64,000 nucleotides of DNA, taken from NCBI GenBank assembly GCA_036377595.1, contig DASUYB010000001.1, positions 1-64,000 of the forward strand, in the 5' to 3' direction. This document shows, in pieces, positions 8,756-26,396 of the stretch. The stretch is from Longimicrobium sp. GTDB taxonomy: Bacteria > Gemmatimonadota > Gemmatimonadetes > Longimicrobiales > Longimicrobiaceae. The number at the start of each line of letters is the position of its first letter. Within the stretch, counting starts at the first letter, position 1. The translations under genes and the position numbers were made by a program. The notes under the pieces are model-generated. The model was not told the origin of the DNA. It saw only the letters and a list, made by a program, of their open reading frames with translations, and ran no database searches.

Positions 8756-8931
8756 CGTTGATCCCTCGTGATGTGGCCCGACGGCGGGCGCGGTCTGCGC
8801 CTCGCGTGTCTACCTGCGTCCCGCCCTCGTGGGTGACCTCATGCAACCCGCGCCGCCGCCGGCCGGAGTGCTCCCTCGCGCGATCCGGCGGTCGCGGCGA
8901 TCCTGATCATAAGTTTCTCCCCGAACGTCCG
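8756..8931. promoter_or_regulatory. Upstream region of the ADOP/ABC operon
   Basis: This is the gap between the terminator of the biosynthetic operon and the permease ATG. A TATGAT hexamer on the minus strand (8906-8911) is a possible -10 element, with only a poor -35 (TTTCGG) at 17 bp. No gene is seen. Confidence 0.35.
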
Positions 8932-8974
8932 AAAACGCGAGGCCCCGGGTCCGCCCGCGCGGCCGACCCGGGCT
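8932..8974 (-). terminator. Intrinsic terminator ending the biosynthetic operon
   Basis: On the minus strand, 12 bp after the M28 peptidase stop, GCCCGGGTC and GACCCGGGGC form a 9-10 bp stem over a GC-rich loop, followed by CTCGCGTTTT. It marks the left boundary of the NRPS-PKS operon. Confidence 0.75.
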
Positions 8975-8986
8975 CGTCCGCGTCCC

Positions 8987-11368
8987 TCAGGCGGCGGGGA
9001 CCACCAGCGTCGCCGCCATGAAGGTGGCGTCCTGCAGGGTGTTGAGGATCGGCGTCGACATGGTCTCGGCCGGGCGCGGGTTCCGCGCGACCTCCGGGAG
9101 CGCCGGGAGGCCGCTGGTGCGGTCGATCGCCTGGATGCTCACCGCGCCCGTCCCCTTCACCCGCAGCGTCAGCTCGATCCCTTCCGCGGGAAGGCCCACG
9201 TAGCGCAGGCTCCACGGCTCGCCGCCACGGTCGCCGCCGCCCAGCGCGCGGCCGTTCACCGAGGCCGCGATCTCCGTCCCCGGCGCCACGTTCACCCACA
9301 CCTGCTCGGCGCCGCGCTGCGACGTCACGCGGACGCGCAGGACCCGTCCGTCCGCCCGCCGCTCGTCGGAGAGCAGCTGCAGCCGCGGCGGCAGCGGCGA
9401 GGCCACGGCGGGGGCGGCGTTCCGCAGGAAGCGGTAGTCCACGGCCGGGAAGTAGTCGGAGAGCGGCCCGGGCCGGGGATTGGCCCCCAGGAAGCGCGAC
9501 GTCCACGCGTCCGGAACCGCGTCGCTGCTCGCCCACGCCGCCTGGTTGCGCGCCGCGTCCATCACGTAGAAGAGGCTGTTCGGCCGGGGATGCCGGGCGT
9601 CGAACGACGACCGCGTCTCCGCCACGCCCAGCAGGACCACGGCGGCCAGCGCGGGCGCGAGGAGCCAGGCCCGTCCGCCCGCGCGCTGCGCCAGCTCCAG
9701 GTGCGGGAGCATCAGGCCCAGCACCAGCGCCACCAGCACCATCAGCAGCCCCACGGCCTGCACCGTCATCCCCAGGTACAGCAGCCAGACGACGGGTCCC
9801 ATCAGCAGCAGCGCGGGAAGGGCGCCCAGCCCCGCCGCCAGCAGCCGCCGCTCGTCGGGCTCGGCGCCGCCGCGGAGCAGCGCCCACAGCCCGGCCGCGC
9901 CGGAGAGGGTGGGCCAGAGCCAGAGATAGCCGCCGCCGGGGAAGACGAGGCCGAACGCCAGCGCCATCACCCCCCACGCGAGAAGGGCCGAGGCCAGCAG
10001 CTCGGCGGCGGTGAGTCGCTTGCGGGCCCAGCGGTGCGCCGCGCCGGTGAAGGCGACGGCGAGGAGGACGAACGCGGCGAAGTAGAGCGCGCCGTTGTAC
10101 GTCTCGCCCATCGGCATCCAGGCGTACGCGGCGTGGGTGGCGCGGACCAGCTGCCACACGCCGGTGAGCACCACGCCGAGCAGGACCAGCATCCCCAGGA
10201 ACCCGAAGAAGCCGAGCACGGTGCGCCCCGGCCGCAGCGCGCGGGCGCGCACCCCCCGGCCGATCACCACCAGGAGGAGCAGGAACGCGGCGGCGGCGAG
10301 AGGCACGGCCCACCCCACGCCGTAGGTGACCAGGCCGAGCAGGGGAACGTTGAAGAAGACGGCGTCGCCCCCCGCCCGCGCGGGGAGGTCGGCGGCGCCG
10401 AAGCGGCGCGCGAGCCCCAGCGCGTACGCGCCCTGGTGCTGCACGTTGCGCGCGTCCACCGAGGCCAGGTCGTCGAGCCGGGTGTGGTACCCGGTGAGCC
10501 CGCCGACGTAGGCGAAGTTCATCCCCGCCACGCCGCCGCGCCTGAACACGCTGAAGTCGGTGTCGTTGGGAAGGAGCCGGTAGATCTCGTAGAAGAGCGA
10601 GCTCCCCACCGGCGCGTCGGCGCCCCGGGCGAACCCGCGCGCCAGCCAGCCGTTGCCGCGGCTCGTCTCGAACATCATGGCCGGGCCGCGGGTGCCGCGC
10701 GCGTCGAAGTTCAGCACCAGCCGCACGTCCTTCGCCCAGGGGTGCGCCTCGCTGAACGCGCGCGCCCCCAGCAGGCCGGACTCCTCGCCGTCGGTGAAGA
10801 GCACGATGACGTCGTCGCGCAGCGGCGGTCCGGCGCGGAGCGCGCGCAGCGTCTCGAGGAGCGCGGCCACGGGGACGCCCGCGTCGTTGGCGCCGGGGCC
10901 GCCCACCACGCCGTCGTAGTGGGTGACGAGGAGGATCGCCTGGTGGCTGCCGCCGCGCCCGGGGAGCCGGGCCGCGATGTTGGTGACGGTGGCGGCCACG
11001 TTCTGCCGGCCGCGCGCCTCGCCGGCCACCGTCGTGGTCTGCACCGACGGCTCCAGGCCGAGCGCGCGCAGCTGCGCCTGGAGATAGAGCTGCACGTCGC
11101 GGTGCGCGGCGGTGCCGGGCGGGCGCGGCCGCTGCGCGATGCGCTGCAGGTGCGGGAGCGCGCGCGCCGCCGAGAACTCGCCCGCCGGCGCCGTCGCGGG
11201 CCTGGCCGCGGGGGGAACGTAGGGGAGCCAGCCCAGCCCCAGCGCCGCCACGGTGGCGGCGAGCGCGGCCAGCGCCAGCCCGCGCGCGCCCACGGCGCGC
11301 GGCGCGCCGCTCCGTGCCTCCGCCCGCGCGGGACGGACCGCCGGGGGGGTGTCTGCCAGTTTCGTCAT
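8987..11368 (-). CDS. Membrane-bound M28-family metallopeptidase
   Basis: This 793-residue protein has a signal-anchor helix at about 30-48 and an M28 aminopeptidase domain at about 65-360. The zinc ligands are in family order: H150 and D152 in THYD, D162 in GANDAG, the catalytic Glu pair E195-E196 in DGEESG, an Asp in LNFDARG, and a late His in GYHTRLDD. Eight or nine hydrophobic segments follow (about 375-610), then a soluble C-terminal domain. This layout resembles the ERMP1/Pff1-like branch of M28. Its ATG overlaps the SbnA stop (ATGA), so it is translationally coupled and the last gene of the operon. It could trim a product or scaffold at the membrane, or be a passenger. Confidence 0.85.
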   Translation of the reverse strand: MTKLADTPPAVRPARAEARSGAPRAVGARGLALAALAATVAALGLGWLPYVPPAARPATAPAGEFSAARALPHLQRIAQRPRPPGTAAHRDVQLYLQAQLRALGLEPSVQTTTVAGEARGRQNVAATVTNIAARLPGRGGSHQAILLVTHYDGVVGGPGANDAGVPVAALLETLRALRAGPPLRDDVIVLFTDGEESGLLGARAFSEAHPWAKDVRLVLNFDARGTRGPAMMFETSRGNGWLARGFARGADAPVGSSLFYEIYRLLPNDTDFSVFRRGGVAGMNFAYVGGLTGYHTRLDDLASVDARNVQHQGAYALGLARRFGAADLPARAGGDAVFFNVPLLGLVTYGVGWAVPLAAAAFLLLLVVIGRGVRARALRPGRTVLGFFGFLGMLVLLGVVLTGVWQLVRATHAAYAWMPMGETYNGALYFAAFVLLAVAFTGAAHRWARKRLTAAELLASALLAWGVMALAFGLVFPGGGYLWLWPTLSGAAGLWALLRGGAEPDERRLLAAGLGALPALLLMGPVVWLLYLGMTVQAVGLLMVLVALVLGLMLPHLELAQRAGGRAWLLAPALAAVVLLGVAETRSSFDARHPRPNSLFYVMDAARNQAAWASSDAVPDAWTSRFLGANPRPGPLSDYFPAVDYRFLRNAAPAVASPLPPRLQLLSDERRADGRVLRVRVTSQRGAEQVWVNVAPGTEIAASVNGRALGGGDRGGEPWSLRYVGLPAEGIELTLRVKGTGAVSIQAIDRTSGLPALPEVARNPRPAETMSTPILNTLQDATFMAATLVVPAA

Positions 11369-12504
11369 CGTGTCGGCCGTGTCGGCTGGGGGGAGAGGAA
11401 GGGCGCGAGCTGCGCCGCACCGAAGTGCTCGCGCACCCAGGCGTCGGAGAAGATGGTGTCGAGGTAGCGCTCGCCGCGGTCGGGGAAGACCAGCACGCAG
11501 GTGGCGTGGGGCTCGATCTCGTCGCGCAGCGCGTGCAGCGCCATCAGGATCCCCCCCGACGAGCCGCCTGCCAGGATCGCCTCCTCGCGCAGCAGGCGGC
11601 GGCACCCGACCACGCAGTCGAGGTCGGTCACCTGGACGAACTGGTCGCCGAGCGAGGGATCGTGCAGCTCGGGCATGCGCGCGGTGCCGTGGCCGGGGAT
11701 CAGGCGCTTGCACGAGCGGCCGCCGAAGATCACGCTCCCCACCGCGTCGACCGCCACGATGCGGGTGCGGAGCCCCGTCTGCCGCACGTATTCCGCGCAC
11801 CCGCGCAGCGTGCCGCAGGTGGCGGTGGCGCAGAAGAGGTAGTCCACGTGCCCGCCGGCCTGGTGGACGATCTCGGCCATCGTCCGGTGGTGCGAGCGCG
11901 AGTTGTTGTGGTTGGCGTACTGGTTGGGCCAGAAGCAGTTCGGCTCCGTCTCCAGCCACTGGCGCACCCGGTCGAGCTTGGCCTGGAGGAGGTCGCCCGT
12001 CACGGGATGCGGCTCGGTGACGACGTCGACAATCGCGCCGTAGGCCCGCAGGATGTCGATGTTCTGCGTGGTCGTCCGTGCGTCCACCACGCAGACGAAG
12101 CGCAGCCCCTGGTAGGCGCACACCTGCGCCAGCCCGATCCCCATGTTCCCCGAGCTGGCTTCCACGACGGTGGTGCCGGCGTCGATCTCGCCCCGGGCCA
12201 GCGCGTCGGAGATGATGCGGAGCGCGGGGCGGTCCTTGATGCTCCCGCCGGGGTTGAAGGCCTCGAGCTTGGCGAACAGGCGGAAGGGGACCCCGCCCAG
12301 CGCCCGGCGGAGGCGGACCAGCGGCGTGTTGCCGATGGTGGCCAGGATCCCGTCGCGCGCCGGGCCCGACTCGGGGAGGACCACGCCCGACACGCTGAAG
12401 CCGGCCGGCAGGCCGTCGCCGTTCGTCGCGTGGACGCCGGGCTCCAGCGCCCACGCGGACCGCGCGGGGGGATCGAGCACGCTTTCGTGACTATCGGTTT
12501 TCAT
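11365..12504 (-). CDS. sbnA: SbnA-like PLP synthase (2,3-diaminopropionate pathway)
   Basis: This 379-residue fold-type II PLP enzyme has the Schiff-base Lys at K90 in GGSIKDRPA, the substrate loop SSGNMGIGLA, and a late GGSSGG phosphate-binding turn. SSGNMG and the VDARTTTQNI region follow SbnA/cysteine synthase-like N-(2-amino-2-carboxyethyl)-glutamate synthases, which join O-phosphoserine and glutamate. The partner SbnB would oxidise that product to L-2,3-diaminopropionate. An extra segment of about 50 residues precedes the usual start (ILATIGNTPLV). GGAG sits 6 bp before the ATG. No SbnB homologue is in the window, so the final product is uncertain. A cysteine or cystathionine synthase role is the alternative. 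It is cotranscribed with the NRPS genes. Confidence 0.8.
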   Translation of the reverse strand: MKTDSHESVLDPPARSAWALEPGVHATNGDGLPAGFSVSGVVLPESGPARDGILATIGNTPLVRLRRALGGVPFRLFAKLEAFNPGGSIKDRPALRIISDALARGEIDAGTTVVEASSGNMGIGLAQVCAYQGLRFVCVVDARTTTQNIDILRAYGAIVDVVTEPHPVTGDLLQAKLDRVRQWLETEPNCFWPNQYANHNNSRSHHRTMAEIVHQAGGHVDYLFCATATCGTLRGCAEYVRQTGLRTRIVAVDAVGSVIFGGRSCKRLIPGHGTARMPELHDPSLGDQFVQVTDLDCVVGCRRLLREEAILAGGSSGGILMALHALRDEIEPHATCVLVFPDRGERYLDTIFSDAWVREHFGAAQLAPFLSPQPTRPTR

Positions 12505-12642: not shown

Positions 12643-15270
12643 TCATGCGGCGGCCTCGCCCGTCGAGGTGCCGCCGTGGTCGACGACGACGATGCGCAGC
12701 TCGCTGACGTGGGGGCGTCCCTCGGCATCCTGCAGCCAGAGGTCGCCGGGAGCGGGGAGCATCTCGGTGACGCCCACCAGGTCGTCCGGCGCCCCCTGCT
12801 CGGCCTGGCGGCGCACCAGGCGGGCGAACTGCTCGGCGTAGACCGCGCTGTCGAGGTCCACGAAGCAGGGCTTGCGCTCCACGGGGACCTTGGTGAAGAC
12901 GAAGCGGGGGAGCCCCTGCGCGCGCGCCCACCGCCGCACCCCCAGGAAGCGGCCGGCCTCCGTCTTCTCGAAGGCGAAGCCCAGCTCGGCGGGGGCAAAG
13001 CGCCAGGTCTCGCGCGAGATCACCAGGCGGTCGATGGTGCGCCGCGGCACATACCGCCCCTCGGTCAGCACGCCGAAGGAGTGGGTGACGATCCCCCCCA
13101 GCGGCTCGCCCACCAGGTCGAGGATCCCGAAGCGGTGCGCGCCGTCGCGCGAGCGCACGCGCAGCTCGCCGCCGACGTCCTCCACCACCAGCGCGGAGAG
13201 GGGAAGGCGGGGCGAGCCGCGGGGCGCCAGCGAATCGCGGCTCCACTCCAGCCGGAACGCCTCGGGCGCCAGCAGCGCGCGCACCGTGCGCGCGGAGAAG
13301 TCGCCGAACTCGCGGGGCTCCACGGGCACCACGTGCGCGCCGCCCAGGTCCACCCCGATGGCCGCCGCCAGCGTGTCGGGCGCGGGGTGCTGGTGGGCGA
13401 AGAGCGAGGCGGCCAGCGTGTTGGCGGCCAGGTGGCACTCGCCCATCACCAGGTGGAAGTCGCCGCGGGCGATGGCCTCCGGGCCGGCGGCCGCGATCAT
13501 CAGGTCGGGCGAGTGGTAGCGGGCCATGCGCCACCCCGGCGCCGCCGCGGGGAACGCCGCCTCCACTCGCGGCCGCAGCTCGGCCGCGCGGGCATGGACG
13601 CGGCGCGCCGATGGCTCGGCGGCCAGCAGCCCGTCCCAGCGCCGCTTCAGCTCGTCGAAGGCGGGGTGGAAGAGAGCCTCCCGCCGGGTGGTGAAGGTGC
13701 CGGTGAGGCGCAGCCAGAGGCGGGTGGCGTCGACCACGGGCGAGCCGTCGCTCCGCGCCAGGTCGTCGTAGATCTCCCGCGCCACGCGCGTGCAGATCTC
13801 CGCGCACTCCACCGTCACCCAGCGCGCGCTCTGCAGCAGCAGCGACAGCGGCTCGTCCAGCGCGCGCAGCAGCTCCGGCCCCAGCCGCACCTGGGCGTCG
13901 CGGCGGCAGTCCTCGTAGACCAGCGTGCGCGCGGCGTACATCGCCCCCGCCGAGCGCGTGGGCGCAACGCCCGTCATCTCCGTGAAGGTCTCGTCCAGCC
14001 GGCCCAGCGCCGGGCCCAGCGCGCGCCAGTCGCCCGCCGCGGCGCTCACCTCGCCGCGCGCCGACTCCAGCGCGTCGAGCTTCTCCATCGCCTCGCGCCG
14101 CAGCGCCTCGTCGCCCACGCCCTCGATCCAGCGCCGCAGCACCCGCTCGGGGTGCACGTCCCAGGGGATGTAGAGGCCGAACCAGATCAGGCCGCGGCTC
14201 TCCATCTCCCGCAGGTGCCGGAAGACGTCGGCCTCGCCGCGCAGGGGGCTGCCGGGGAGGCGCACCAGCACCCGGGCGATGTCGCGCGCCGCGCGGGTGC
14301 CGTCGCACATCGACAGCGCGGCGGCGTCGGCCAGCGGGAGGGAGACGGCGCCGTAGACGGGGTGGTGGAGGACCGTGCCGTCCACGCGGATCGTGGGGAT
14401 GCGGACCGGCCGGAGCCAGGGGTGATAGTCCTCCCGCGCGGAGAGCGACGCCGCCAGCGCCTCGATCCCCCACATCTCGAAGTAGGTCCGGCGGGCGGCC
14501 ACCAGCCCGGGCCCCGGGCGCGACACGATCGGCGCGCCCTCGTCCACCAGCTCGGCCCAGCCGACGGGGCCGAAGAAGCCGATGGTGTCGTTCTTCACGC
14601 AGTAGCGCTGCACGTAGCTGGCGAGCAGGCTCTCGTGCTGCCGCTGCTTCGAGGCGCGCGGCCCGTCCTCGTGCGCGGCCAGGAGCGGGTCGAGCGCGGT
14701 GAGCAGCGCCTGGCGGTTCTGCCAGGTCACGGCCTCGCGCAGGCGGTCGGAGGCGGCGAGCTCGCGCAGCACCTTCGACGTCTGGCGCAGCCCGGCGGCG
14801 TGGCCGCGCTCGAACGCCGCGGCCGCGGGGGCCAGCGCCTCGCGGGCCTGTCGAGCCTCCTCCACCCGCTCCGCTATCGCCGGGGGGAGATCGCCCGCCG
14901 GCAGCTTCCCGGCCTTCACCCGCGAGCGCGCGTCGAGGAGCGGGTGGCGCGCCGCGGCATCGTCCCAGCGCCCCTCCGCGCGCAGCGTATCCAGCGCGGC
15001 GTTGATGCTCTCCAGCAGCGCCCGCTCCGCCTCCCCCGCGCGGCGCTCCGCCTCGAGCAGGGCGTCCGCCGCGTGAGCGGCCTCGGGCGCGGCCAGCCGC
15101 AGCGCGTCGGCGACGGGGAAGCCGGCGCCGCGCAGCCCGGCGCAGCGCCAGAACGCCAGCCCGCCGGGACGGACGCGGACCAGGTGGCCGGGGAGGGGCG
15201 GCGGGGTCTCCTCCGCGGCGCGGTCGGCGAGCGCGAGCCCGGCCGCCTCCGCGTATTGCAGGTCACTCAT
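12643..15270 (-). CDS. Short LanB-like (lantibiotic dehydratase N-domain) protein
   Basis: This 875-residue protein looks like the tRNA-dependent glutamylation part of class I lanthipeptide dehydratases. Recognisable parts are RYCVKNDTIGFFGPVGWAEL at about 205, the RRTYFEMW segment, HPVYGAVSLPLADAAAL, LIWFGLYIPWDVHPERVLRR and the late FTKVPVERKPCFVDLDSAVY. I see no C-terminal SpaB_C-type elimination domain, and 875 residues leave little room for one. Such short LanB proteins include the PEARL enzymes, which add an amino acid from aminoacyl-tRNA to a peptide. No precursor-peptide gene is obvious, so the acceptor may be an NRPS product. GGAG lies 6 bp upstream, and the exporter gene ends 26 bp away. 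Function is inferred. Confidence 0.7.
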   Translation of the reverse strand: MSDLQYAEAAGLALADRAAEETPPPLPGHLVRVRPGGLAFWRCAGLRGAGFPVADALRLAAPEAAHAADALLEAERRAGEAERALLESINAALDTLRAEGRWDDAAARHPLLDARSRVKAGKLPAGDLPPAIAERVEEARQAREALAPAAAAFERGHAAGLRQTSKVLRELAASDRLREAVTWQNRQALLTALDPLLAAHEDGPRASKQRQHESLLASYVQRYCVKNDTIGFFGPVGWAELVDEGAPIVSRPGPGLVAARRTYFEMWGIEALAASLSAREDYHPWLRPVRIPTIRVDGTVLHHPVYGAVSLPLADAAALSMCDGTRAARDIARVLVRLPGSPLRGEADVFRHLREMESRGLIWFGLYIPWDVHPERVLRRWIEGVGDEALRREAMEKLDALESARGEVSAAAGDWRALGPALGRLDETFTEMTGVAPTRSAGAMYAARTLVYEDCRRDAQVRLGPELLRALDEPLSLLLQSARWVTVECAEICTRVAREIYDDLARSDGSPVVDATRLWLRLTGTFTTRREALFHPAFDELKRRWDGLLAAEPSARRVHARAAELRPRVEAAFPAAAPGWRMARYHSPDLMIAAAGPEAIARGDFHLVMGECHLAANTLAASLFAHQHPAPDTLAAAIGVDLGGAHVVPVEPREFGDFSARTVRALLAPEAFRLEWSRDSLAPRGSPRLPLSALVVEDVGGELRVRSRDGAHRFGILDLVGEPLGGIVTHSFGVLTEGRYVPRRTIDRLVISRETWRFAPAELGFAFEKTEAGRFLGVRRWARAQGLPRFVFTKVPVERKPCFVDLDSAVYAEQFARLVRRQAEQGAPDDLVGVTEMLPAPGDLWLQDAEGRPHVSELRIVVVDHGGTSTGEAAA

Positions 15271-15296: not shown

Positions 15297-16985
15297 TCAG
15301 GCGGGCGCGAGCTGCGCGGCGGCGAGCGGAAGCTCCTCCACGCCGCCGTCGTACACGATCTTCCCGTAGTCCAGCCGCACGATCCGGTCGGCCACGCCGT
15401 AGTAGCGGTCGTCGTGGGTGATCACCACCACCGCCTTGCCGCGCGCCTTCAGCCCGGGAAGGATCTGCGCGTAGAACACCTCCTTGAACAGCGGGTCCTG
15501 GTCGGCCGCCCACTCGTCGAACAGGTAGATGGGGCGGTCTTCCAGGTAGGCCGTGAGCAGGGCCAGCCGCTTGCGCTGCCCCTGCGACAGCTCGGTGGTC
15601 GAGAGCGCGCCCTCCTCCACGCGGACCTTGCGGTCCAGGTGCAGGCGCGCCAGGTAGGCGCGCGCGTCTTCGTCGAGCCGCTCGCCCTCCAGGCCGAGGA
15701 GCACGTCGAAAAGGAAGAAGTCGGAGAAGACGGCGGAGAAGAGCTGCCGGTACGCGTCGGCATCCGCCGGGCCCACGCGCCGGCCGTCCAGGCGGATCTC
15801 GCCGCTCTCGGGGGCGTAGAGCGCGGTCAGCAGCTTGGCGAAGGTGGTCTTGCCGCTGCCGTTGCCGCCCACCACGAAGAGGAGCTCGCCCGGCCGCAAC
15901 GCCAGGTCGATGGGGCCCAGGGTGAAGACCTCGTCCTCGTTCTCGCGGTGGAAGCGGTGGGTCACGCCCACCATCTCCAGCGAGCGGAACGACGGCGCCG
16001 CAGCCGGCGCGGCATCTCCCTCGCGCCCGTCCTCGCCCAGCGACAGCCCCAGCTCTTCCACCGCCCGCACGGCGATGGCCCCGCGGCCCAGCGAGGCCAA
16101 CTGGTTCATCAGCACGTCGAGCGGGGTGAGCATGTAGAGGATGGCCAGGGTGTAGCCGGTGAGCACCGGCTGCGGCACCCCGCCCATCCGCGGCGCCAGG
16201 AAGAGGACGGCGCCGATCAGCACGAAGAACAGCACCTGCCCCCAGCAGTTGGCCAGCGCGTAGATCGTCCCGCCGGCCACGTTGTGGTCGCGCAGCTTCG
16301 CCACCGTGGGGCCCAGCTGCCGGGCGACGAAGGCCTGGCGGCGGGGATGGTGCAGCTTCAGCTCCTTGGTGCCGTCGACCAGTCCGCGGAAGTGCCCGAA
16401 CAGCGCGTCCCAGGTCTGCCGGCTCTGGCGGAAGTGGCGCAGCGCCCACACCAGCGGGAGCTGGTAGGAGACGATCCCCACCACCACCGCGGCCAGCACC
16501 AGCCCGAACACCCGCAGCGACAGCCAGGCCATGTACGCCAGGCAGCTGACCACCACCGTGCCGTGAAGGAAGACCATCGGCACGTTGGTGAGCGCCAGCG
16601 TGAGCGTCTGCACGTCCTCGGTGAGCGACGCCAGCATGCGCGGCGCGCCCAGCGTCTCGAGCCGGCGCAGCGGCGCGGAGATGATCTTCCGCGTCAGCCG
16701 CAGGCGCAGCTCCGACGCCGTGGCCTGGGTGAGCCGGATGAGCAGCACCTGCGACACGAAGCGCGACACCGGCAGCAGCACGCACAGCGCGCCGAACGCC
16801 GCCCACGCCCGGGCGTCGTTGCGGGCCGGGTGGGCCAGCATGTTGTTGATCAGCGTGAGCAGCACCGTGCTGGCCGCGCCGCCCACCACGCCCAGCGCGA
16901 CCACGGCCGCCAGCCGTCGCGCCGCGCGCCCGGGATGGTCGGACTGGCGGAGAAGGAACGACAGCAGCGTTACGAAGTGGGGCAC
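15297..16985 (-). CDS. PvdE/SyrD-type cyclic-peptide ABC exporter
   Basis: This 562-residue half-transporter has six membrane segments fused to an ATPase. The membrane part (about 20-315) is followed by Walker A GGNGSGKTT near 375, the signature ELSQGQRKRLALL near 465, and Walker B IYLFDEWAADQDP near 492. LSQGQRKR and the DEWAADQDP box are hallmarks of the cyclic-peptide export family (PvdE, SyrD), which moves nonribosomal peptides or their precursors across the inner membrane. The start is GTG with GAGGTG 6 bp upstream. It lies 40 bp after the thioesterase-terminated NRPS, so the peptide made by this operon is the expected substrate. An ABC toxin exporter is less likely given the signature box. 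Confidence 0.92.
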   Translation of the reverse strand: MPHFVTLLSFLLRQSDHPGRAARRLAAVVALGVVGGAASTVLLTLINNMLAHPARNDARAWAAFGALCVLLPVSRFVSQVLLIRLTQATASELRLRLTRKIISAPLRRLETLGAPRMLASLTEDVQTLTLALTNVPMVFLHGTVVVSCLAYMAWLSLRVFGLVLAAVVVGIVSYQLPLVWALRHFRQSRQTWDALFGHFRGLVDGTKELKLHHPRRQAFVARQLGPTVAKLRDHNVAGGTIYALANCWGQVLFFVLIGAVLFLAPRMGGVPQPVLTGYTLAILYMLTPLDVLMNQLASLGRGAIAVRAVEELGLSLGEDGREGDAAPAAAPSFRSLEMVGVTHRFHRENEDEVFTLGPIDLALRPGELLFVVGGNGSGKTTFAKLLTALYAPESGEIRLDGRRVGPADADAYRQLFSAVFSDFFLFDVLLGLEGERLDEDARAYLARLHLDRKVRVEEGALSTTELSQGQRKRLALLTAYLEDRPIYLFDEWAADQDPLFKEVFYAQILPGLKARGKAVVVITHDDRYYGVADRIVRLDYGKIVYDGGVEELPLAAAQLAPA

Positions 16986-17025: not shown

Positions 17026-20000
17026 TCAGACGCATGCGGCCTCGCCGAGCGCCGGCGCGGGCTGCTGCGCGCCGTCCAGGCTGGCGCGCAGCAGCCCCGC
17101 CAGCACCTGCACGTGCGGCCGCTGCAGGATCAGGTCGTGGTTCCCGGGCACGTCGACGATCTCCAGTCCCCCCTCCGCCAGCGGCCCCCAGCCGAGCGTG
17201 GGGTCCGCGTCGCCGTCGCCGTGGCCGTCGAGCGAGCGGAAGAGGGTGATGGGGCCCGGGTACGGCCGCAGCTCGTAGCGCTGCTTGGCCTCGCTGTGGC
17301 GGATCCCCGCGCGCAGGTAGCGCAGCGCCACGTCCGCGGTGACGCCGGGGGGGAAGACACCGTGATCGACGGCGTAGGCCACCTGCGCCTCCACCCCGCC
17401 GGCGCGCCGCAGCTCGTCGGCGGTCACGGGGCAGCCGGGGCGCGCGAAGCGCAGGATCACCTCGGCCCAGTCGGCCGCGGTGGACCGCGCGTTCAGGCTG
17501 GTGTCGAGGATCGCCAGCAGGGCGACGGACTCGCCCGCGGCGGCGAGCTGCTGCGCCATCTCCAGCGCCACGAAGCCGCCGAACGAGTACCCGGCCAGGT
17601 GGTACGGCCCCTCGGGCTGCACCTCGCGGACGGCGGCCAGGTAGCTCGCCGCGATCTCCTCCAGGGAGAGCTCCGCGTCGTCGCCGCCCTGCCAGGGGAG
17701 CGACTGCAGCCCGTAGAACGGCTGGTCGGCGCCCAGGCACTGGGCCAGCTCCACGTAGCCTAGCACCTCGCCGCCCATCCCGTGGACGCAGAAGAGCGGC
17801 GGCCGCGAGCCGCTGGCGCGGATGGGGACGAGGGGTGACGAGGACGCCGGCGCGGACCGGTCGCGGAGGACGGCGGCGAGCCGCTGGATGGTGCCCGCGC
17901 CCAGCAGCACGGCGAGCGGAAGCTGGCAGCCGAACTCGCGCTCCACGGCCGCCAGCATCCGCACCGCGGCCGTCGAGTGGCCGCCCAGGTCGAAGAAGTT
18001 CTCCGTCACGCCGATGGGGCTGACGCCGAAGAGCTCCTCCCAGATCCGCCGCAGCCGCAGCTCCCACCCGTCGCACGGCGTCTCGTACGGCGTCTCCAGG
18101 GCGTTCCCCGCCTCGTCGGGCGCGGGGAGGGTGCCGGCAGGGATCGCCGGCAGCCGCACGAAGTACCGCGGCGCCAGGTGCCGCGGCACCCCGGCCCGCA
18201 GGAAGGCGCGCACCTCCTCGACGGCCAGGTCCGTCCCGGGCGCCGCGGCGAAGCAGGCCACCAGGTGGGCATCGCCCGCGGGATCGGTCCACGCGCGCAC
18301 CCGGGCGTCGGCGACGGCGGGGTGCGCCAGCAACCGCGCCCACACCGCCGGCGCCGCGTACGCCTCCTCGTCGCCCGTGCCGCGGAACTCCAGTCCCCCG
18401 CCCTCCCGCCGGCGGCCCAGGTCGCCGGTGCGGTACAGCCACGCGCCGGGACGCGCTGCGAAGGGGTTGGGGATGAACCGATCCGATTCGCTCTCCGGCC
18501 ACGGCTCGACGGCGCTCTCGACGCACACCTCTCCATCCACGCCCACCGGCGCGAGATCCATCTCGGCCGAGACGACGTGGAGCGCCCATCCCCCGACCGC
18601 CGAGCCGACGTCCAGCGGCGACGCGGCGGCGGAATCGGCCCCGTCCACCACCGACGCGGCGGCCCACGAGGGGATCCCGCCCGGCTCGTAGACCTTGAGC
18701 ACGCGCGCGCTCCGGCGGGCCAGCTGGCCCGCCAGGTACGCGCCCAGGGCGGGGCCCATGCTGATCGCCTTGAACTCACCGCCTCCGGACCAGCCGGCCT
18801 GCAGCAGCTCCAGCCACGCGGCCGGCTCCGCCTCGAGCACGGTCGCGTCCGACGCGTCCAGCGCCTGCAGCACCGCGGAGGCGTCCACAGCCGCTTCGGC
18901 CAGCGCGACGCTGCTCCCGGCCGCGAGCGCGGCCAGCGCCCGCAGCGCGGCGCGCACGTCGAGCGGTCCCGCGACCAGCACGCGGTCGCGCCGGCCGACG
19001 CCGAGGTGCCCTGACAGCGCGGCGACGCGCCCCAGCACGGGCTGCTCCGAGAGGCCGACGTGGAACCCGACCGCCGTTTCGACCCGGCAGAGCACGCCGC
19101 CGGGAGCCCCCGCGACGCCGTTCGGCCGCGGCACGGCCACGCATCCCGACGGGCTCAGCAACAGGTCGGCGCCATCTCCCGTCTTCCCTTCCCCGGCGAC
19201 GGTGAAGGCGGCGCCGCACCTGCGCGCGCCCAGCATGGCCGCGATCGCTTCGGCGGCGCGGGGGAACGAGAGCGCCACCAGCGTCCCCGGGCCGGCGCCG
19301 TGCTCGCGCAGCCGCGCCGCCACCTCCGACGCGCGCCGGTCGAGATCGGCCCAGGTGAGCCCGCCGTGCGCGTCCGTCACTGCGGGCTCGGCGGCGCGGC
19401 GGGCGGCCCACCACCCGATCAGCCCGTGCACGCTCTCCCCGGCGGGGCGAACGGGGGCCGGGCCGAGCAGGCGGCCGCGCTCGGCCTCGCTCAGCACCGG
19501 CACCTCACCCACGCTCCGCGCCGTCCCCCGCGCGAAGGCGCGCAGCACCGCGCCGATGCTGTCGGCGACGCGGGCCATCGCCCCCTCGTCGAAGCGCCGG
19601 GCGTCGTAGACCAGGCGGACGAGGAGCGGGTTGAGCGGCCCGGCGACCACCGTCACCGGATAGGCCGTCTCCAGCCGGCTGCGCACGCCCACCACGTCGA
19701 ACGGCGTCGCGGCGCCCGCTGCCTCGTCCGGAGACGGGCCGCCGGGCGTGTTCTGGAAGACGAGGAGGCTCTCGAAGAGCTGCTCGTGCGCGGGGCGTCC
19801 GGCCCACTGCGCCACGCTGGCCGGCGCGACCCACTCGTACTCGCGCACGCCCACCAGCGCCTGCTGCAGCTCGCCCAGCCACTGCGCCAGCGGCGTCTCC
19901 GGCCGCACCTGCGTGCGCACGGGGAGGTTGTTGATGAACATCCCCACCATCGTCCCCGAGCCCGGCAGGTCGGCGGGGCGCCCCGAGACGGTGGTGCCGA

Positions 20001-23000
20001 AGACGACGTCGCCGGTGCGGGCGTAGCGCGCCAGGACCAGGGCCCACGCGCCGGAGACCAGCGTCCCCAGCGTCAGCCGGTGGCGGCGGGCGAAAGCCTG
20101 CAGCGCCTCGCTTTCCGCGGCGGAGAGCTGCAGCGAAGCCTCCGCCACCCGCGCGCCCCCCGCGGGGCGCGCCGGCGCGTCGCCGAACAGGCGCGTGGGC
20201 TCGCGGAAGCCGGCGAGCGTGCGGCGCCACCAGGCCTCGGCGGCCGCGCGGTCCTGCCCCGCGAGCCAGTCGAGATAGTTGCGAAAAGGGTCCGCGGCGG
20301 TGGACCGGGGGGCGCGGCCGTGCGCGAGCGCCTCATACGCCTCCAGCACCTCGCCCAGCACCAGGTCGCGGCACCACGCGTCGAGGACCAGGTGGTGATA
20401 GCTCCAGACCACCTCGGTCTCGTCGTCGCGCACGCGGATCACGGCCAGGCGCATGAGCGGCGCGCGCGCCGGATCGAAGCCGCGCTCGCGGTCGGCCCGC
20501 AGGAACGCGTCGAGCCGCGCCCGGAGCGAATCGTCATCCCCCGCGCCGCGCCAGTCGTGATGGTCGATGGGGATTTGGACGTGGCGGAGGACCACCTGCC
20601 TGCGGTGGCTGCCGGAGGAGACGAACGCCGTGCGCAGCGCGGTGTGGCGGTCGATCACCTGCTGCCACGCGCGCTCGAACGCGGCCGGATCGGGCGCGCC
20701 GCGCATGGTGATGCTCTTCTGCTCGAAGCCCACGGTGCTTCCCGGGGCCAGGGCGTAGAAGAGCAGCCCTTCCTGCAGCGGTGTGAGGGGATACACGTCT
20801 TCCACCTCCGCCGCGCCATTCGACGCCGCGGCCTCGCCCAGGATGGCGTCGAGCTGCGGCCCGTCCAGCCCGGCGAGCGCGAAGTCCGTCCCCGGTCCCG
20901 CGGGCGCCTCGCCGCGCGCGGACGGCGGCGGGTCGGCCGCGCCGCCGCCCGGGGGCGGCGGCGCGAGGAGGGCGCGCAGCTCGTGCAGCACCGCCGACGC
21001 CAGCGCGGCGATGGTGGACGCACGGTGGATGTTCTCGCTGTACGCCCAGTGGAAGTGGAGCTGGCCGCCGACCACGCTGGCGTTGAGGTCGAGCAGGTAG
21101 CGGCGGTGTCCGCGCGGGCTGCGGTCGGCGCCCGGCGGCTCGCTGGCGATGGTGAGCGGACCGGAGGCCATCCCGCCCTCACCCAGCCGGCTCAGGTAGT
21201 TGAACTTGATCTCGGGCGACGGATCGCCCTGCAGCGCCGCCGCCGTGTCGGCGTTCAGGTAGCGCAGCAGCCCGTACCCGATCCCCCGGCCTGGAATCGC
21301 CCGCAGCGCGTCCTTCGCCGCCGCGATCGAATCACCCGGCGCGGCTTCGCCGGAGGTGCGCACGTGCACGGGGTAGTGCGTGGTGAACCAGCCCACGGTG
21401 CGCAGGAGGTCCACGTCGTCGAAGAGCCCCTCGCGTCCGTGCCCCTCCATCTCCACCCGCACCCCGGCGCCGCCCGACCACGAGGTGACGGCCCGCGCCA
21501 GGGCGGCCAGGATCAGCTCGTGCGGCTGCGCGCCGTGCTCCGCCGCGCCCTGCAGCAGCGCCTCGGTGGCCTCCGCCTCCAGCGAGGCGAGCAGCGTCCG
21601 CGACGAGGCCACCGTGTTCTCCCCCTCCGCATGGTCGCGGGGGAGGCCGGACGCCGCACCCTCTCCGGCACCCTGCCAGAAGGGGAGCTGCGCCACGATC
21701 TCGGGGGATTGCGCCGCCTCGGCCAGCCGGGTGGCCCAGCGCGCCACGGAGGTGGTGCGGGGCGGCAGCGCCACCGCCTCGCCGGCCGAAAGTTGACGGA
21801 TCGCGGCCGCCAGGTCCTCAAGCAGGATGCGCCACGACACCGCGTCCACCACCAGGTGGTGGACGGCCGCCAGCAGCTTCCGCGGCGCGCCGGCGCCGAG
21901 CTCGAAGAGGGTGAAGCGCGCGACGGGCCCGTTCGCCAGGTCCAGGCTCGCCTGGCGCTCGTCGACGGCCGCCGCCAGCGCGGCGGCGCGCGCGAACGCC
22001 GTAGTCGCGGAAAGCTCGACGCGCTCGAAGGAGCCGGCCGCCTCCGCCGCGTCGGCGACGTGCTGGCGCCAGCCGTCCGCCGTCTTCTCGAACCGCGCGC
22101 GCAGGGCGTCGTGGTGGGTGACGACGGCGCGCACCGCGGCCTCCAGCGTCTCCGCCGTCACGTCGGCGGCGACGTCGAGGAGCAGGCTCTGGTTCCAGTG
22201 ATGCGGGTCCTCGAACTCCTCCTCGAAGAACCAGCGCTGGATGGGCGTGAGCGGCACCTCGCCCACGACCGGCCCTTCCTCTTCGCCCTCCGCGACCGGA
22301 TCGGCGATCGCGGCCAGCTCGGCGATGGTGTGGTGATCGAAGATGCGGTTCGGGTTCAGGCGGAGCCCCGCCGCGTTCGCGCGCGCGGCGACCTGGATGG
22401 CCAGGATCGAGTCGCCGCCCCGGTCGAAGAAGTCGTCGTGGATGCCGACCTCGTCGACCTGGAGGACCTCGGCCCAGATCGCCGCCAGCGTACGCTCGGC
22501 GTGCGTGCGCGGCGCCGCGAAGGCGCCGGCCGCCGCGGCCTCGGGCGCGGGGAGCGCGGCGCGGTCGACCTTGCCGTTGGGGGTGAGCGGAAGCGCGTCC
22601 AGCGCCACCACGTGGGTGGGCACCATGTAGTCCGGAAGGCGCGCGGCGAGGAAGCGCCGGAGCTCCTCCGGCGCCCCCTCGCCCTGCCCCGGCACCACGT
22701 ACGCGGCCAGGCGCGGCTCCTCGCCGGCAAGCGTGACCACCGCCGCCTGCACCGCGGGGTGCGACAGCAGCGCCGCCTCGATCTCGCCCGGCTCCACGCG
22801 GAAGCCGCGGACCTTCACCTGCCGGTCGGCGCGGCCCAGGAACTCGAGCGCGCCGTCGGCCAGCTGGCGGACCCGGTCGCCCGTGCGGTACATGCGCCCG
22901 CCCGCCGCGGCGAACGGGTTCGGCGCGAAGCGCTCGGCGGTGAGGCCGGGCCGCGCCAGGTAGCCGCGAGCGACGCCCGCGCCGCCCACCCAGAGCTCGC

Positions 23001-25371
23001 CGGCCACGCCGGGAAGCACCGGGTGCAGCGCCGCGTCCAGCACGTACAGCTGGCAGTTCGGCAGCGGCCGGCCGATCGGCACCGTCGCCGCGGGAGATTC
23101 CTCCCGGCGGCCCACGGGCAGCGTCGACACGCCGACCGTCGTCTCCGTGGGCCCGTAGTGGTTGACCACCCGGCAGTGCGGCGCGAGGTCGGCCACGCGC
23201 TCGACCAGCGGCCACGGCGCCGCCTCGCCGCCCAGCACCAGCAGGCGCCGGGGGATGAGGCGCTCGGGGCGGGCGCCCTGCAGCAGCGCGCCCAGGTGCG
23301 ACGGCACGATCTTCAGGCAGTCGATCCGGTGCCGCTGCAGGTAGTCGCCCAGCGCCTCCGCGTCCGACGCCGTCTCCGATGCGATGACGTGCAGCGTGCC
23401 GCCGCCGCAGAGCGCGCCGAAGACCATGGTGTTGCCCAGGTCGGCGGCGAAGGTGGAGACGGTGGCGAACGACGCGCCCGCCTCGATCCCCAGCCGCTCG
23501 CGGGCGGCGGCCACGTAGTGGGCGATCTGCCGGTGCTCCACCGCCACGCCCTTGGGCTTCCCGGTGGAGCCGGAGGTGAAGAGCACGTACGCCAGCTGCT
23601 CCGGGTCGACCTCCGCGTCCGCCGGAGCGTCCGCGGAGAGATCGGCCACCGCGGCGGCCACCAGCAGCGCCTCGCATCCACCGGGAACGGCCTCGAGCAG
23701 CGACGCCTGGGTGAGGACGATGCGCGCGCCGGCCTCGGCCAGCAGCCCGGCGATCCGCTCGCGCGGGAGGGAGGGCTCCAGCGGCATGTACGCGCCGCCC
23801 GCCTTCAGCACCCCGACCAGGGCGACCAGGACGTCGGGCGAGCGGTCGAGCAGCAGCGCCACCCGCTCCTCCGGCGCCAGCCCGCGGCTCCGCAGCGTCC
23901 GCGCGACGGCGTTCGCCCGCCGGTCCAATTCGCCGTACGACAGCGTCGTGCCCTCGTGCACGACCGCCGGCGCGTCCGGGGCGCGCCGCGCGTGTGCCTC
24001 GATCTGCCGGTGAAGCGGCTCGATCGCGAAGTCCATCCGCGTGTCGTTGAACTCCACGACCGCGCGGTGCCGCTCGGCGGCGCCCAGGTACGCGAGCCCG
24101 CCGGCCGCCGCGTCCGGCTTGGCCAGGGCGTTCGCCAGCAGCGTCCGCCACCGCTCCGCCAGGCGAACGATCTCCAGCGCGCCGGGTCCCCCCGCCGCGC
24201 TACGCACGGCGCCGTGCAGCGCGCCGCCGTCCCGCACCAGCTGGAGCTGGAGCGGGAACGGCTCGGCGGCCGCGTCCAGCGCCAGCAGGCGGACCCCGGC
24301 CCCATCGATCGGCGGAGACGGCGGCCACGCGCAGTGCTCGAACCCCAGCGCCAGCCCGCGGTCGTCGGCGAGGGCCGGATGGTCCTGCCAGCGCGCGGCC
24401 TCGCCCCGGACGGCGGCCACGTTGCGCGCGAGCTCCGCGAACGGCCGGCCGTGCGCCACGTCCACCCGCAGCGGGAGGATGCGGGCGTACGGGCCCAGCG
24501 CGTCCTGCAGCGCGGGGTCGTCGCGGTACTCCACGACCTCGCCCAGGGCGAGCGCCTCGCGCCCCTCCGGCCGCGCGGCGAGGAGCGCCCACGAGGCCGC
24601 CAGCAGCGCGTCGGACGAGATCCCCAGCGCACCCGCCGCCGCATCCAACCGCTCGACGAGGGACGCATCGAGCGTGAACGCATGCAGCGCGTCGGCATCG
24701 ATGCCGTCCGCGGAGATGGACGCGGCTCCCTGCGCCCTATCCACCTCCAGCGCGCGCGACCAGAAGGCGCGGGCCTCGTCGCCCTCCGCCTCCACCTCCG
24801 CCTGGCGCTCGTCCTGCCAGGCGGAGAACTCGGCGTACGCCAGCCGCTCGTCGTCGCCCGCGACCGGGGCGTACGCGCGGGCCACCTCCGCGGCCAGGTT
24901 CCCCAGCGTGCGCGCGTCGCCCCAGAGCGCGGGGACGGCGATCACCACCACGTGGCGCGCCTCCGACCGCCGCAGCAGCGTGACGCGGAGAAGGGGCCCG
25001 TTCTCCAGGTCCGGCGCCTCGCACCGCGCGCGGCGGAGGAAGGCGCGGACCTCGCGGAGCTCCGCGTCCGCCTCCCACCCGCTGGCGTCGGCTTCCTCGA
25101 ACGCCGGCTCCAGCTCGTCGAGCAGCGCCTGGAAGGGAACCTTCAGGCCGCGCCGCGCACGGAAGACGGTGCGCAGCATCTCGTCGGCCGCCGCGACCCG
25201 GCGCACGGACTCCTCGAGCCGCTGCGGGTCGACGGGGCCCTCGACGAGGAGCGCGCACTGCAGCCAGCGCTGCGCGCCGCCCCGCAGCCAGGCGCGCCGC
25301 TGCTGGGCCGACAGCGGGAACATCTCGACCACGCGTCCCACGCCCGCCCGTTCGGAGGCAAGCACGCTCAC
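17026..25371 (-). CDS. Terminal NRPS: I-A(Asp)-T-E-C-A(dead)-T-TE
   Basis: This 2781-residue synthetase ends the line. Residues 1-430 form a condensation-like domain without HHxxxDG (PALWGD near 145), matching reported interface domains. The first A domain (TSGSTGKPKG near 598) has by-eye specificity residues DLTKVGHVG, an Asp code. T follows (GGDSILA near 984), then an epimerase with HHLVVDAVSW near 1174 and FNYLSRLG near 1392. A C domain has HHLVLDAW near 1664. The second A domain (about 1985-2440) lacks the ATP-loop motif and the NGKxDR Lys motif, so it should be inactive. T (GGHSTAA near 2463) and a thioesterase (GYSFGG near 2594, His in GNHDLI near 2743) end the protein. The GTG start overlaps the hydroxylase stop by 4 bp. 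The predicted unit is D-beta-hydroxy-Asp plus an unassigned last residue. Confidence 0.9.
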   Translation of the reverse strand: MSVLASERAGVGRVVEMFPLSAQQRRAWLRGGAQRWLQCALLVEGPVDPQRLEESVRRVAAADEMLRTVFRARRGLKVPFQALLDELEPAFEEADASGWEADAELREVRAFLRRARCEAPDLENGPLLRVTLLRRSEARHVVVIAVPALWGDARTLGNLAAEVARAYAPVAGDDERLAYAEFSAWQDERQAEVEAEGDEARAFWSRALEVDRAQGAASISADGIDADALHAFTLDASLVERLDAAAGALGISSDALLAASWALLAARPEGREALALGEVVEYRDDPALQDALGPYARILPLRVDVAHGRPFAELARNVAAVRGEAARWQDHPALADDRGLALGFEHCAWPPSPPIDGAGVRLLALDAAAEPFPLQLQLVRDGGALHGAVRSAAGGPGALEIVRLAERWRTLLANALAKPDAAAGGLAYLGAAERHRAVVEFNDTRMDFAIEPLHRQIEAHARRAPDAPAVVHEGTTLSYGELDRRANAVARTLRSRGLAPEERVALLLDRSPDVLVALVGVLKAGGAYMPLEPSLPRERIAGLLAEAGARIVLTQASLLEAVPGGCEALLVAAAVADLSADAPADAEVDPEQLAYVLFTSGSTGKPKGVAVEHRQIAHYVAAARERLGIEAGASFATVSTFAADLGNTMVFGALCGGGTLHVIASETASDAEALGDYLQRHRIDCLKIVPSHLGALLQGARPERLIPRRLLVLGGEAAPWPLVERVADLAPHCRVVNHYGPTETTVGVSTLPVGRREESPAATVPIGRPLPNCQLYVLDAALHPVLPGVAGELWVGGAGVARGYLARPGLTAERFAPNPFAAAGGRMYRTGDRVRQLADGALEFLGRADRQVKVRGFRVEPGEIEAALLSHPAVQAAVVTLAGEEPRLAAYVVPGQGEGAPEELRRFLAARLPDYMVPTHVVALDALPLTPNGKVDRAALPAPEAAAAGAFAAPRTHAERTLAAIWAEVLQVDEVGIHDDFFDRGGDSILAIQVAARANAAGLRLNPNRIFDHHTIAELAAIADPVAEGEEEGPVVGEVPLTPIQRWFFEEEFEDPHHWNQSLLLDVAADVTAETLEAAVRAVVTHHDALRARFEKTADGWRQHVADAAEAAGSFERVELSATTAFARAAALAAAVDERQASLDLANGPVARFTLFELGAGAPRKLLAAVHHLVVDAVSWRILLEDLAAAIRQLSAGEAVALPPRTTSVARWATRLAEAAQSPEIVAQLPFWQGAGEGAASGLPRDHAEGENTVASSRTLLASLEAEATEALLQGAAEHGAQPHELILAALARAVTSWSGGAGVRVEMEGHGREGLFDDVDLLRTVGWFTTHYPVHVRTSGEAAPGDSIAAAKDALRAIPGRGIGYGLLRYLNADTAAALQGDPSPEIKFNYLSRLGEGGMASGPLTIASEPPGADRSPRGHRRYLLDLNASVVGGQLHFHWAYSENIHRASTIAALASAVLHELRALLAPPPPGGGAADPPPSARGEAPAGPGTDFALAGLDGPQLDAILGEAAASNGAAEVEDVYPLTPLQEGLLFYALAPGSTVGFEQKSITMRGAPDPAAFERAWQQVIDRHTALRTAFVSSGSHRRQVVLRHVQIPIDHHDWRGAGDDDSLRARLDAFLRADRERGFDPARAPLMRLAVIRVRDDETEVVWSYHHLVLDAWCRDLVLGEVLEAYEALAHGRAPRSTAADPFRNYLDWLAGQDRAAAEAWWRRTLAGFREPTRLFGDAPARPAGGARVAEASLQLSAAESEALQAFARRHRLTLGTLVSGAWALVLARYARTGDVVFGTTVSGRPADLPGSGTMVGMFINNLPVRTQVRPETPLAQWLGELQQALVGVREYEWVAPASVAQWAGRPAHEQLFESLLVFQNTPGGPSPDEAAGAATPFDVVGVRSRLETAYPVTVVAGPLNPLLVRLVYDARRFDEGAMARVADSIGAVLRAFARGTARSVGEVPVLSEAERGRLLGPAPVRPAGESVHGLIGWWAARRAAEPAVTDAHGGLTWADLDRRASEVAARLREHGAGPGTLVALSFPRAAEAIAAMLGARRCGAAFTVAGEGKTGDGADLLLSPSGCVAVPRPNGVAGAPGGVLCRVETAVGFHVGLSEQPVLGRVAALSGHLGVGRRDRVLVAGPLDVRAALRALAALAAGSSVALAEAAVDASAVLQALDASDATVLEAEPAAWLELLQAGWSGGGEFKAISMGPALGAYLAGQLARRSARVLKVYEPGGIPSWAAASVVDGADSAAASPLDVGSAVGGWALHVVSAEMDLAPVGVDGEVCVESAVEPWPESESDRFIPNPFAARPGAWLYRTGDLGRRREGGGLEFRGTGDEEAYAAPAVWARLLAHPAVADARVRAWTDPAGDAHLVACFAAAPGTDLAVEEVRAFLRAGVPRHLAPRYFVRLPAIPAGTLPAPDEAGNALETPYETPCDGWELRLRRIWEELFGVSPIGVTENFFDLGGHSTAAVRMLAAVEREFGCQLPLAVLLGAGTIQRLAAVLRDRSAPASSSPLVPIRASGSRPPLFCVHGMGGEVLGYVELAQCLGADQPFYGLQSLPWQGGDDAELSLEEIAASYLAAVREVQPEGPYHLAGYSFGGFVALEMAQQLAAAGESVALLAILDTSLNARSTAADWAEVILRFARPGCPVTADELRRAGGVEAQVAYAVDHGVFPPGVTADVALRYLRAGIRHSEAKQRYELRPYPGPITLFRSLDGHGDGDADPTLGWGPLAEGGLEIVDVPGNHDLILQRPHVQVLAGLLRASLDGAQQPAPALGEAACV

Positions 25372-26396
25372 AGGTCCGCCATGGTGCGCATGTCACCCAT
25401 CGCCACCACGATCTTGCGCTTCCCCTTGAAGGGGTTGCGCGCGTGGGCCACGATCAGGTTGTCGACCATCAGGATGTCGCCCGCCTGCCACGTGTACGCC
25501 ACCGACTCGCGCCAGTAGGTGTCGGTGATCTCGTCGACCACCTCGTCGGGGATGGGCGTGCCGTCGCCGTAGTAGACGTTGCGCGGCATGTCGTCGGGGC
25601 TGAACAGCGACGACAGCGCCTCGCGCACCTCGGGGTCCAGGCGCGACACGTGGTGCAGCTGGATCTGGTTGAAGAACACCTTCTCGCCGGTGGCGGGATA
25701 GGTGATCACCGCCGGCCGCACCTGCGAGGTGCGCAGCCCGTTCTCGGTCCACTGGAAGTCGGTCTCGGTCAGCCGGCAGTACTTCTCCACATCCTCGCGG
25801 CTGTCGGTGCGGAAGAACTCCCGCCAGCTCACGTCGAGGCCGTCGGTGAAGTTGCGCACGTACATCAGCCCCTTCTCCTCCATCGGCTCCACGATCTCGC
25901 GCGGCAGCACGTTGTAGATGTGCCGGCAGTCGGCGATCGGCGTCTCGCCGCCCTCCTCCGAGGGGATCACGCAGTGGAAGAACTGCCGGGCCGGGAACTT
26001 GGGCAGGTGCGAGCTCTCGTTGTGGAAGAGGATCGCCTTGTCGGCCGGATAGGGCGTGGAGTGGTAGACCTTGGTGCCGGTGGCCTCGGGCGGCAGGTCG
26101 CCGTAGTCGCCGAACAGCTCGGGGACCACCGCCTGCGCCACGCGCTCGAACGACGCGGTGGAGGGCACGCTGAAGCCGCGGAAGAGGATGGCGCCGTGCT
26201 TCGCGAACAGCGCGTCCACCTCGTCGCGGTGGTCGGCCACCCAGTCGGCCAGCTCGATGTCGCGCACCAGCGGCTGCACGATCAGCGGCATCGCGCGCCC
26301 CTCGATCATCGGCTCCTTCGACACCAGCTCGAGGTCGGCCAGGTCCACCGCAACGCGCTGGCGGCCGCTCTTCAGCTTGGAGAATCCGGTGCTCAT
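25368..26396 (-). CDS. TauD/SyrP-type Fe(II)/2-oxoglutarate amino-acid hydroxylase
   Basis: This 342-residue protein is a TauD/TfdA-family dioxygenase. The metal-binding triad appears as H125 and E127 in FHNESSH and H318 in LIVAHARNP, with R327 (GKRKIVV) as the 2-oxoglutarate anchor. HxE rather than HxD is the form seen in SyrP-like enzymes that hydroxylate NRPS-bound Asp at the beta carbon. It lies between two NRPS genes whose A domains both read as Asp and are both preceded by a histidine-less condensation-like domain. The best prediction is beta-hydroxylation of carrier-bound Asp. AAGGAG sits 7 bp before the ATG. Its stop overlaps the GTG of the next gene (GTGA). Stereochemistry and the exact target module cannot be read. 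Confidence 0.88.
   Translation of the reverse strand: MSTGFSKLKSGRQRVAVDLADLELVSKEPMIEGRAMPLIVQPLVRDIELADWVADHRDEVDALFAKHGAILFRGFSVPSTASFERVAQAVVPELFGDYGDLPPEATGTKVYHSTPYPADKAILFHNESSHLPKFPARQFFHCVIPSEEGGETPIADCRHIYNVLPREIVEPMEEKGLMYVRNFTDGLDVSWREFFRTDSREDVEKYCRLTETDFQWTENGLRTSQVRPAVITYPATGEKVFFNQIQLHHVSRLDPEVREALSSLFSPDDMPRNVYYGDGTPIPDEVVDEITDTYWRESVAYTWQAGDILMVDNLIVAHARNPFKGKRKIVVAMGDMRTMADL

What the first reader, a model, noticed from the sequence alone, without database searches (positions are those of the whole stretch)
18060..19420. Catalytically dead adenylation domain in the terminal, thioesterase-bearing module
The segment keeps A-domain landmarks (LTWADLDRRA at its start, LYRTGDLGRR late). 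It lacks the Ser/Thr/Gly-rich ATP loop, the YGPTE motif and the A10 Lys motif, and its middle is eroded. The C, T and TE domains around it are intact. Such a module needs loading from outside, passes the chain without extension, or uses a free acceptor.
Basis: seen in the sequence. Interest (0 to 1): 0.7.

Follow-up and report, generated by a model that had tools for sequence, protein, structure and literature searches.

The report
Dead adenylation domain in terminal NRPS module
The last module of a giant peptide-making enzyme has a broken amino-acid-activating domain that is nevertheless kept intact as protein in a second genus, so the final building block is probably loaded by another adenylation domain, as already known from several antibiotic and siderophore pathways.

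Summary
One uninterrupted ORF (17026-25371, minus strand, 2781 aa) encodes Interface-A1-T1-E-C2-A2*-T2-TE. A2* (18097-19419) keeps a few A-domain landmarks, but A3 (P-loop), A5, most of A8 and A10 with its lysine are gone. A1 and every other A domain of the line keep A3. It is the only genuinely eroded A domain seen among about 115 in this genome. It is not a frameshift or assembly error: the single ortholog found, in another genus (78% identity), has the same losses. Between the two, A2* shows dN/dS 0.43 (95% CI 0.33-0.57), like the TE, E and Interface domains of the same protein, so it is maintained, not decaying freely. C2 and T2 are among the most constrained domains. This fits a module that still extends the chain with T2 loaded by another A domain. 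No stand-alone loader lies in the joined ~90 kb cluster, so intermodular loading by an A domain of the line, possibly A1 (predicted Asp), is favoured but unproven. Precedents exist: fusarinine SidD, cystobactamid CysK, albicidin, capreomycin CmnI and syringomycin SyrE. New member of a known kind; moderate-low interest.

The parts
17026..25371 (-). NRPS gene, Interface-A1-T1-E-C2-A2*-T2-TE, 2781 aa, GTG start
   Evidence: single ORF; Pfam; local domain HMMs
24061..25317 (-). Interface-type C-like domain without an HHxxxDG motif
   Evidence: paired with an upstream TauD gene
22567..24003 (-). A1, intact adenylation domain, code DLTKLGHVGK (Asp-like); candidate loader of T2
   Evidence: assignment of the code to Asp from general knowledge
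22303..22521 (-). T1 carrier domain (GGDS)
20977..22266 (-). Epimerization domain (HHLVVDAV)
19477..20790 (-). C2 condensation domain, HHLVLDAW intact, dN/dS 0.23
18097..19419 (-). A2*, dead adenylation domain (A3, A5, A8, A10 lost)
   Evidence: conserved dead in ortholog G015:C13:19322-20674
17866..18087 (-). T2 carrier domain, GGHS intact, dN/dS 0.12
17050..17814 (-). Type I thioesterase, GYSFGG / ILD / GNHD
25368..26396 (-). TauD-family dioxygenase, likely Asp beta-hydroxylase
   Evidence: PF02668; neighbouring Interface domains
15297..16985 (-). cyclic-peptide exporter ABC transporter
   Evidence: TIGR01194, 476 bits
12643..15270 (-). LanB N-terminal/PEARL-like protein without elimination domain
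   Evidence: PF04738 only
11365..12504 (-). SbnA-like 2,3-diaminopropionate biosynthesis enzyme
   Evidence: TIGR03945, 411 bits

Best explanation
A2* is an adenylation domain that lost catalysis before its two known carriers diverged and is kept as a non-catalytic scaffold between C2 and T2. The module still adds a residue: T2 is loaded in trans or across modules by a functional A domain, most simply another A domain of the same assembly line (A1, predicted Asp, on the same polypeptide, is one candidate). C2 then joins the D-configured upstream chain to that residue, and the TE releases the product. Shown: loss of the motifs, shared loss in the ortholog, continuing purifying selection on C2, A2*, T2 and TE, and absence of a stand-alone A-T gene in the joined cluster. 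Inferred: that T2 is loaded at all, by which A domain, and with what.
For: Motif table. The ortholog in another genus is dead in the same way, with the A8 deletion shared. dN/dS: C2 0.23, T2 0.12, A2* 0.43 (CI 0.33-0.57), TE 0.45; for A2*, codon positions 1+2 differ at 126/882 sites against 123/441 at position 3, P = 7e-9. GC3 of A2* is 0.94, as in neighbouring coding sequence. Every A domain in C31-C116-C1 is in a multimodular NRPS and the other 12 keep A3 (or a near variant in the first, fatty-acyl-ligase-like one); no stand-alone A-T was seen. Precedents: SidD module 2 has an inactive A and A1 loads T1 and T2 (PMC10192304); CysK module 3 is inactive and loaded via CysH/CysB (PMC7966384); CmnI is loaded by CmnA-A1 (PMC12400406); albicidin, syringomycin and ramoplanin (PMC8949500).
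Against: No loader was identified; no product or assay exists. The dN/dS test rests on one ortholog pair. Selection on C2 and T2 could also reflect a role without extension. T2 shows no special resemblance to T1, A1's usual partner, so nothing in the sequence points to A1 in particular. The cluster path C31-C116-C1 is inferred from exact 121-bp contig overlaps; C116 could be repeated or other contigs could belong.
Confidence: 0.6

Rival explanations
1. Pass-through or skipped module: no residue is added at the last module; the chain is released from T1, or after transfer to T2, by the TE, and C2-A2* only holds T2-TE in place.
For: A2* is dead; the literature describes domain skipping in NRPSs (PMC8949500). 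The same line holds another damaged unit, C0-T with HQIVADGW and no A domain.
Against: C2 has an intact HH motif and is one of the most conserved domains (dN/dS 0.23), which is unexpected if it no longer condenses anything.
Confidence: 0.15
2. A2* has been repurposed as a docking platform for a trans-acting partner (loader or tailoring enzyme), the A-domain counterpart of the X and Interface C-like domains.
For: A2* evolves at the same rate as the Interface domain of the same protein, a C-like domain without the catalytic motif, of a type associated with beta-hydroxylases (identity 0.75 and 0.73; dN/dS 0.43 and 0.45). The conserved stretches (aa 2135-2209, 2360-2409) lie outside the lost active-site loops.
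Against: Simple scaffolding explains the same pattern; no partner was identified; A2* has more indels than its neighbours (6 events).
Confidence: 0.13
3. Free acceptor or post-release completion: C2 uses a soluble amine, or the TE hydrolyses the chain and the PEARL-like protein (12643-15270) adds the last amino acid from aminoacyl-tRNA.
For: A LanB N-terminal protein without elimination domain lies two genes downstream. A related enzyme, SnaE, adds Thr to an NRPS product (PMC11212132); PEARLs extend C-terminal carboxylates (PMC12945691).
Against: A free acceptor makes T2 and TE redundant, yet both are intact and constrained. A PEARL-like role need not involve the last module: the sna cluster has such an enzyme with intact modules.
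Confidence: 0.09

Closest known systems
SidD / Nps6 (fusarinine C NRPS), module 2 with an inactive A domain (PMC10192304)
   Same: Defective A remnant retained in a downstream module; C and T domains present; the upstream A domain on the same protein loads both T domains.
   Different: Fungal; SidD's remnant is truncated by about 290 residues at the N-terminus, whereas A2* is near full length with motifs lost throughout; loading here not shown.
CysK module 3 (cystobactamid) and the matching albicidin module (PMC7966384, PMC8949500)
   Same: A domain present but inactivated by motif loss (A10 lysine in CysK) within a bacterial assembly line; T intact.
   Different: Complemented by a stand-alone A-T (CysH, AlbIV), with the shuttle CysB in cystobactamid; no such genes were found in this cluster. 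The CysK case is an internal module; this one carries the TE. A2* has lost far more than the A10 lysine.
SyrE terminal C-T-TE (syringomycin, PMC8949500)
   Same: The TE-bearing last module lacks A function.
   Different: A domain entirely absent; SyrB1 and SyrC supply the residue.
CmnI / VioI (capreomycin, viomycin; PMC12400406)
   Same: Module without A function; T loaded by another module's A domain.
   Different: No A remnant; a separate protein; loading of Dap demonstrated there.

Membership tests
NRPS adenylation domain (AMP-binding, PF00501), catalytically active | A3 P-loop TSGSTGxPKG | tested here: not met
   VETAVGFHVG in its place
NRPS adenylation domain (AMP-binding, PF00501), catalytically active | A5 YGPTE, A8 and A10 catalytic lysine | tested here: not met
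   YEPGG, A8 deletion, no lysine
NRPS adenylation domain (AMP-binding, PF00501), homology and fold | Sequence homology to A domains | tested here: met
   PDB A domains at E down to 7e-35, profile 1e-67 (that profile includes T2)
NRPS adenylation domain (AMP-binding, PF00501), homology and fold | A-domain fold | tested here: inconclusive
   The model matches A domains (Z 33, rmsd 3.2-3.6 over about 350 residues), but its alignment held intact A domains; the two-sequence control failed (pLDDT 33)
Inactive A module complemented by another A domain (SidD/CysK/albicidin type) | Defective A between C and T domains with intact catalytic motifs | tested here: met
   (motifs and selection only)
Inactive A module complemented by another A domain (SidD/CysK/albicidin type) | T domain shown to be loaded by another A domain | not testable with these tools
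   needs intact-protein mass spectrometry
Complemented by stand-alone A-T (CysH/AlbIV/SyrB1 type) | Stand-alone A-T gene in the cluster | tested here: not met
   none in C31-C116-C1; contigs beyond these were not excluded
PEARL-like NRPS-associated LanB (SnaE type) | PF04738 present, PF14028 elimination domain absent, NRPS neighbourhood | tested here: met
   activity not testable

The most novel reading that the evidence does not exclude
A2* is a repurposed, catalytically dead A domain that recruits a specific trans-acting partner to the terminal module, an A-domain counterpart of the X and Interface domains.
Probability: 0.12. Interest if true: 0.55.

Novelty: new member of a known kind. Interest (0 to 1): 0.28.

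Why it matters
It warns that counting A domains will mispredict this lipopeptide, and gives a bacterial case where a heavily eroded A domain is maintained across genera in a release module. If A1 loads T2, it would be a bacterial parallel to the fungal SidD logic within one polypeptide and a natural template for engineering modules without their own A domain.

Tried and rejected
Frameshift or assembly error: rejected (open frame, independent ortholog). Free pseudogene-like decay: rejected for the domain as a whole (dN/dS CI excludes 1); its middle (aa 2060-2300) is looser, 0.56 (0.41-0.77). The PEARL-like protein as loader of T2: considered, but PEARL chemistry extends carboxylates rather than charging carriers; its homolog in G007 is fused to a TE and lies next to an A-T-C-T gene whose last T has no A domain, suggestive but a single case. 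Chain reversal by a ureido-forming C domain: an EHHLVHDG motif is present upstream (64.27 kb) but lies mid-line behind a fatty-acyl-AMP-ligase start, so it does not explain the terminal module. Search for more orthologs: only two of 395 sampled genomes of the phylum at E <= 1e-70. A broad literature query on degenerate A domains returned nothing; other queries found the precedents.

Full report
OBSERVATION. The segment lies in a single open frame of 2781 codons, 17026-25371 on the minus strand. Pfam and local domain models give the order Interface-like C, A1, T1, E, C2, A2*, T2, TE. An alignment of A2* with eight other A domains of the line, its ortholog and further domains from the ortholog cluster and two outside loci shows that the N-terminal LTWADLDRRA and the A7 YRTGD are kept, while A2, A3, A4, A5, A8 and A10 are lost, several with deletions. 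In a genome-wide scan for AMP-binding domains A2* scores 50.6 + 30.1 bits in two fragments, against roughly 190-347 bits for intact NRPS A domains.

NOT AN ARTEFACT. A protein 78% identical over its whole length occurs in a different genus of the same family (G015:C13, which corresponds to JAQBQD010000194.1, a Gemmatimonadetes MAG). The cluster is collinear at about 84% nucleotide identity from 6 to 38.6 kb of the window. Its A2* is dead in the same way, with the A8 deletion shared. Among 395 sampled genomes of the phylum only these two carry it at E <= 1e-70. Of 28 other TE-bearing loci fetched from family genomes, none is eroded like A2*; most carry A3, one in the same genome has no A domain at all (C-T-TE), and a few could not be judged.

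MAINTAINED, NOT DECAYING. Nei-Gojobori estimates between the two orthologs with codon bootstrap: A2* dN/dS 0.43 (0.33-0.57), TE 0.45, Interface 0.45, E 0.41, A1 0.31, C2 0.23, T2 0.12. Third positions of A2* differ about twice as often as first and second positions (123/441 against 126/882, P = 7e-9). A2* has more indels (6 events) and its lost active-site region is the least conserved, while stretches outside it are 84-88% identical. A2* therefore evolves like the other domains of this protein that must fold. It also evolves like the Interface domain, itself a C-like domain without the catalytic motif. This rests on one pair of sequences.

FOLD. AlphaFold with an alignment that included intact A domains gives a recognisable A domain (pLDDT 74.5; Z about 33, rmsd 3.2-3.6 over about 350 residues), with a disordered stretch (model residues 87-133) leading into the lost P-loop region. 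A control with only the two dead sequences failed altogether (pLDDT 33), so retention of the fold is likely but not independently shown.

CONTEXT. C1 is joined to C116 and C31 by exact 121-bp end overlaps. In the joined 89.7-kb path the A domains that the contig ends had cut are complete. The line starts with a fatty-acyl-AMP-ligase-like domain (PF23024) and includes predicted Gly, two Cys with cyclization-type domains and a nitroreductase-like oxidase, PKS modules, and two Interface-A modules with the code DLTKLGHVGK (Asp-like) beside a TauD dioxygenase. SbnA-like and SbnB/OCD-like genes at the two ends suggest diaminopropionate supply. All 12 other A domains keep A3 or, in the first fatty-acyl-ligase-like one, a near variant (TSGSTATPKG), and none is stand-alone. 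Specificity assignments rest on general knowledge of the codes.

MECHANISM. C2 keeps its HHxxxD motif and is strongly constrained; T2 keeps its serine and is strongly constrained; the TE triad motifs are present. The simplest reading is that the module still extends the chain with T2 loaded by another A domain. Since no stand-alone A-T exists in the joined cluster, intermodular loading by an A domain of the line is favoured; A1 on the same polypeptide is one candidate by analogy with SidD (PMC10192304). Nothing here proves which A domain or amino acid. Pass-through, a docking role for A2*, and a free acceptor or PEARL-completed product remain possible at lower probability.

KNOWN OR NEW. Modules with absent or inactive A domains that are loaded from elsewhere are established: SidD, cystobactamid CysK, albicidin, ramoplanin, enduracidin, syringomycin SyrE and capreomycin CmnI. 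This is a new member of that kind on sequence grounds, with the loading step untested. The unusual points are the extent of erosion, its maintenance across genera, and the lack of an obvious loader.

Noticed in passing
window 34054-32366 (minus strand); ortholog G015:C13:4577-6334: A second damaged unit in the same line: after an aminotransferase domain comes a C domain with HQIVADGW (second catalytic His replaced by Gln, also in the ortholog), followed by a T domain with no A domain.
   Followed up: partly
L028, about C1:64276 (just beyond the window): A C domain with EHHLVHDG, the signature reported for ureido-forming C domains (PMC11212132), but in a mid-line module of a line that starts with a fatty-acyl ligase.
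   Followed up: partly
window 12643-15270; G007:C1:99990-102143: PEARL-like LanB N-terminal protein in an NRPS/PKS cluster; besides the ortholog in G015, the only other homolog among 395 sampled genomes of the phylum is fused to a thioesterase next to an A-T-C-T NRPS gene whose last T has no A domain.
   Followed up: partly
window 11365-12504 and L069 (C31) 8508-10097: SbnA-like and ornithine-cyclodeaminase/SbnB-like genes at opposite ends of the cluster suggest diaminopropionate as a building block; the A domain that uses it was not identified.
   Followed up: partly
G000:C108:35448-36260 (L063, L072): Another terminal module in the same genome with no A domain at all (C-T-TE).
   Followed up: no
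C1 end, C116, C31 (L028, L070, L069): Contig breaks fall in a 121-bp exact repeat inside near-identical A domains (code DVASLGVTYK), so the number of these repeated modules is uncertain.
   Followed up: partly
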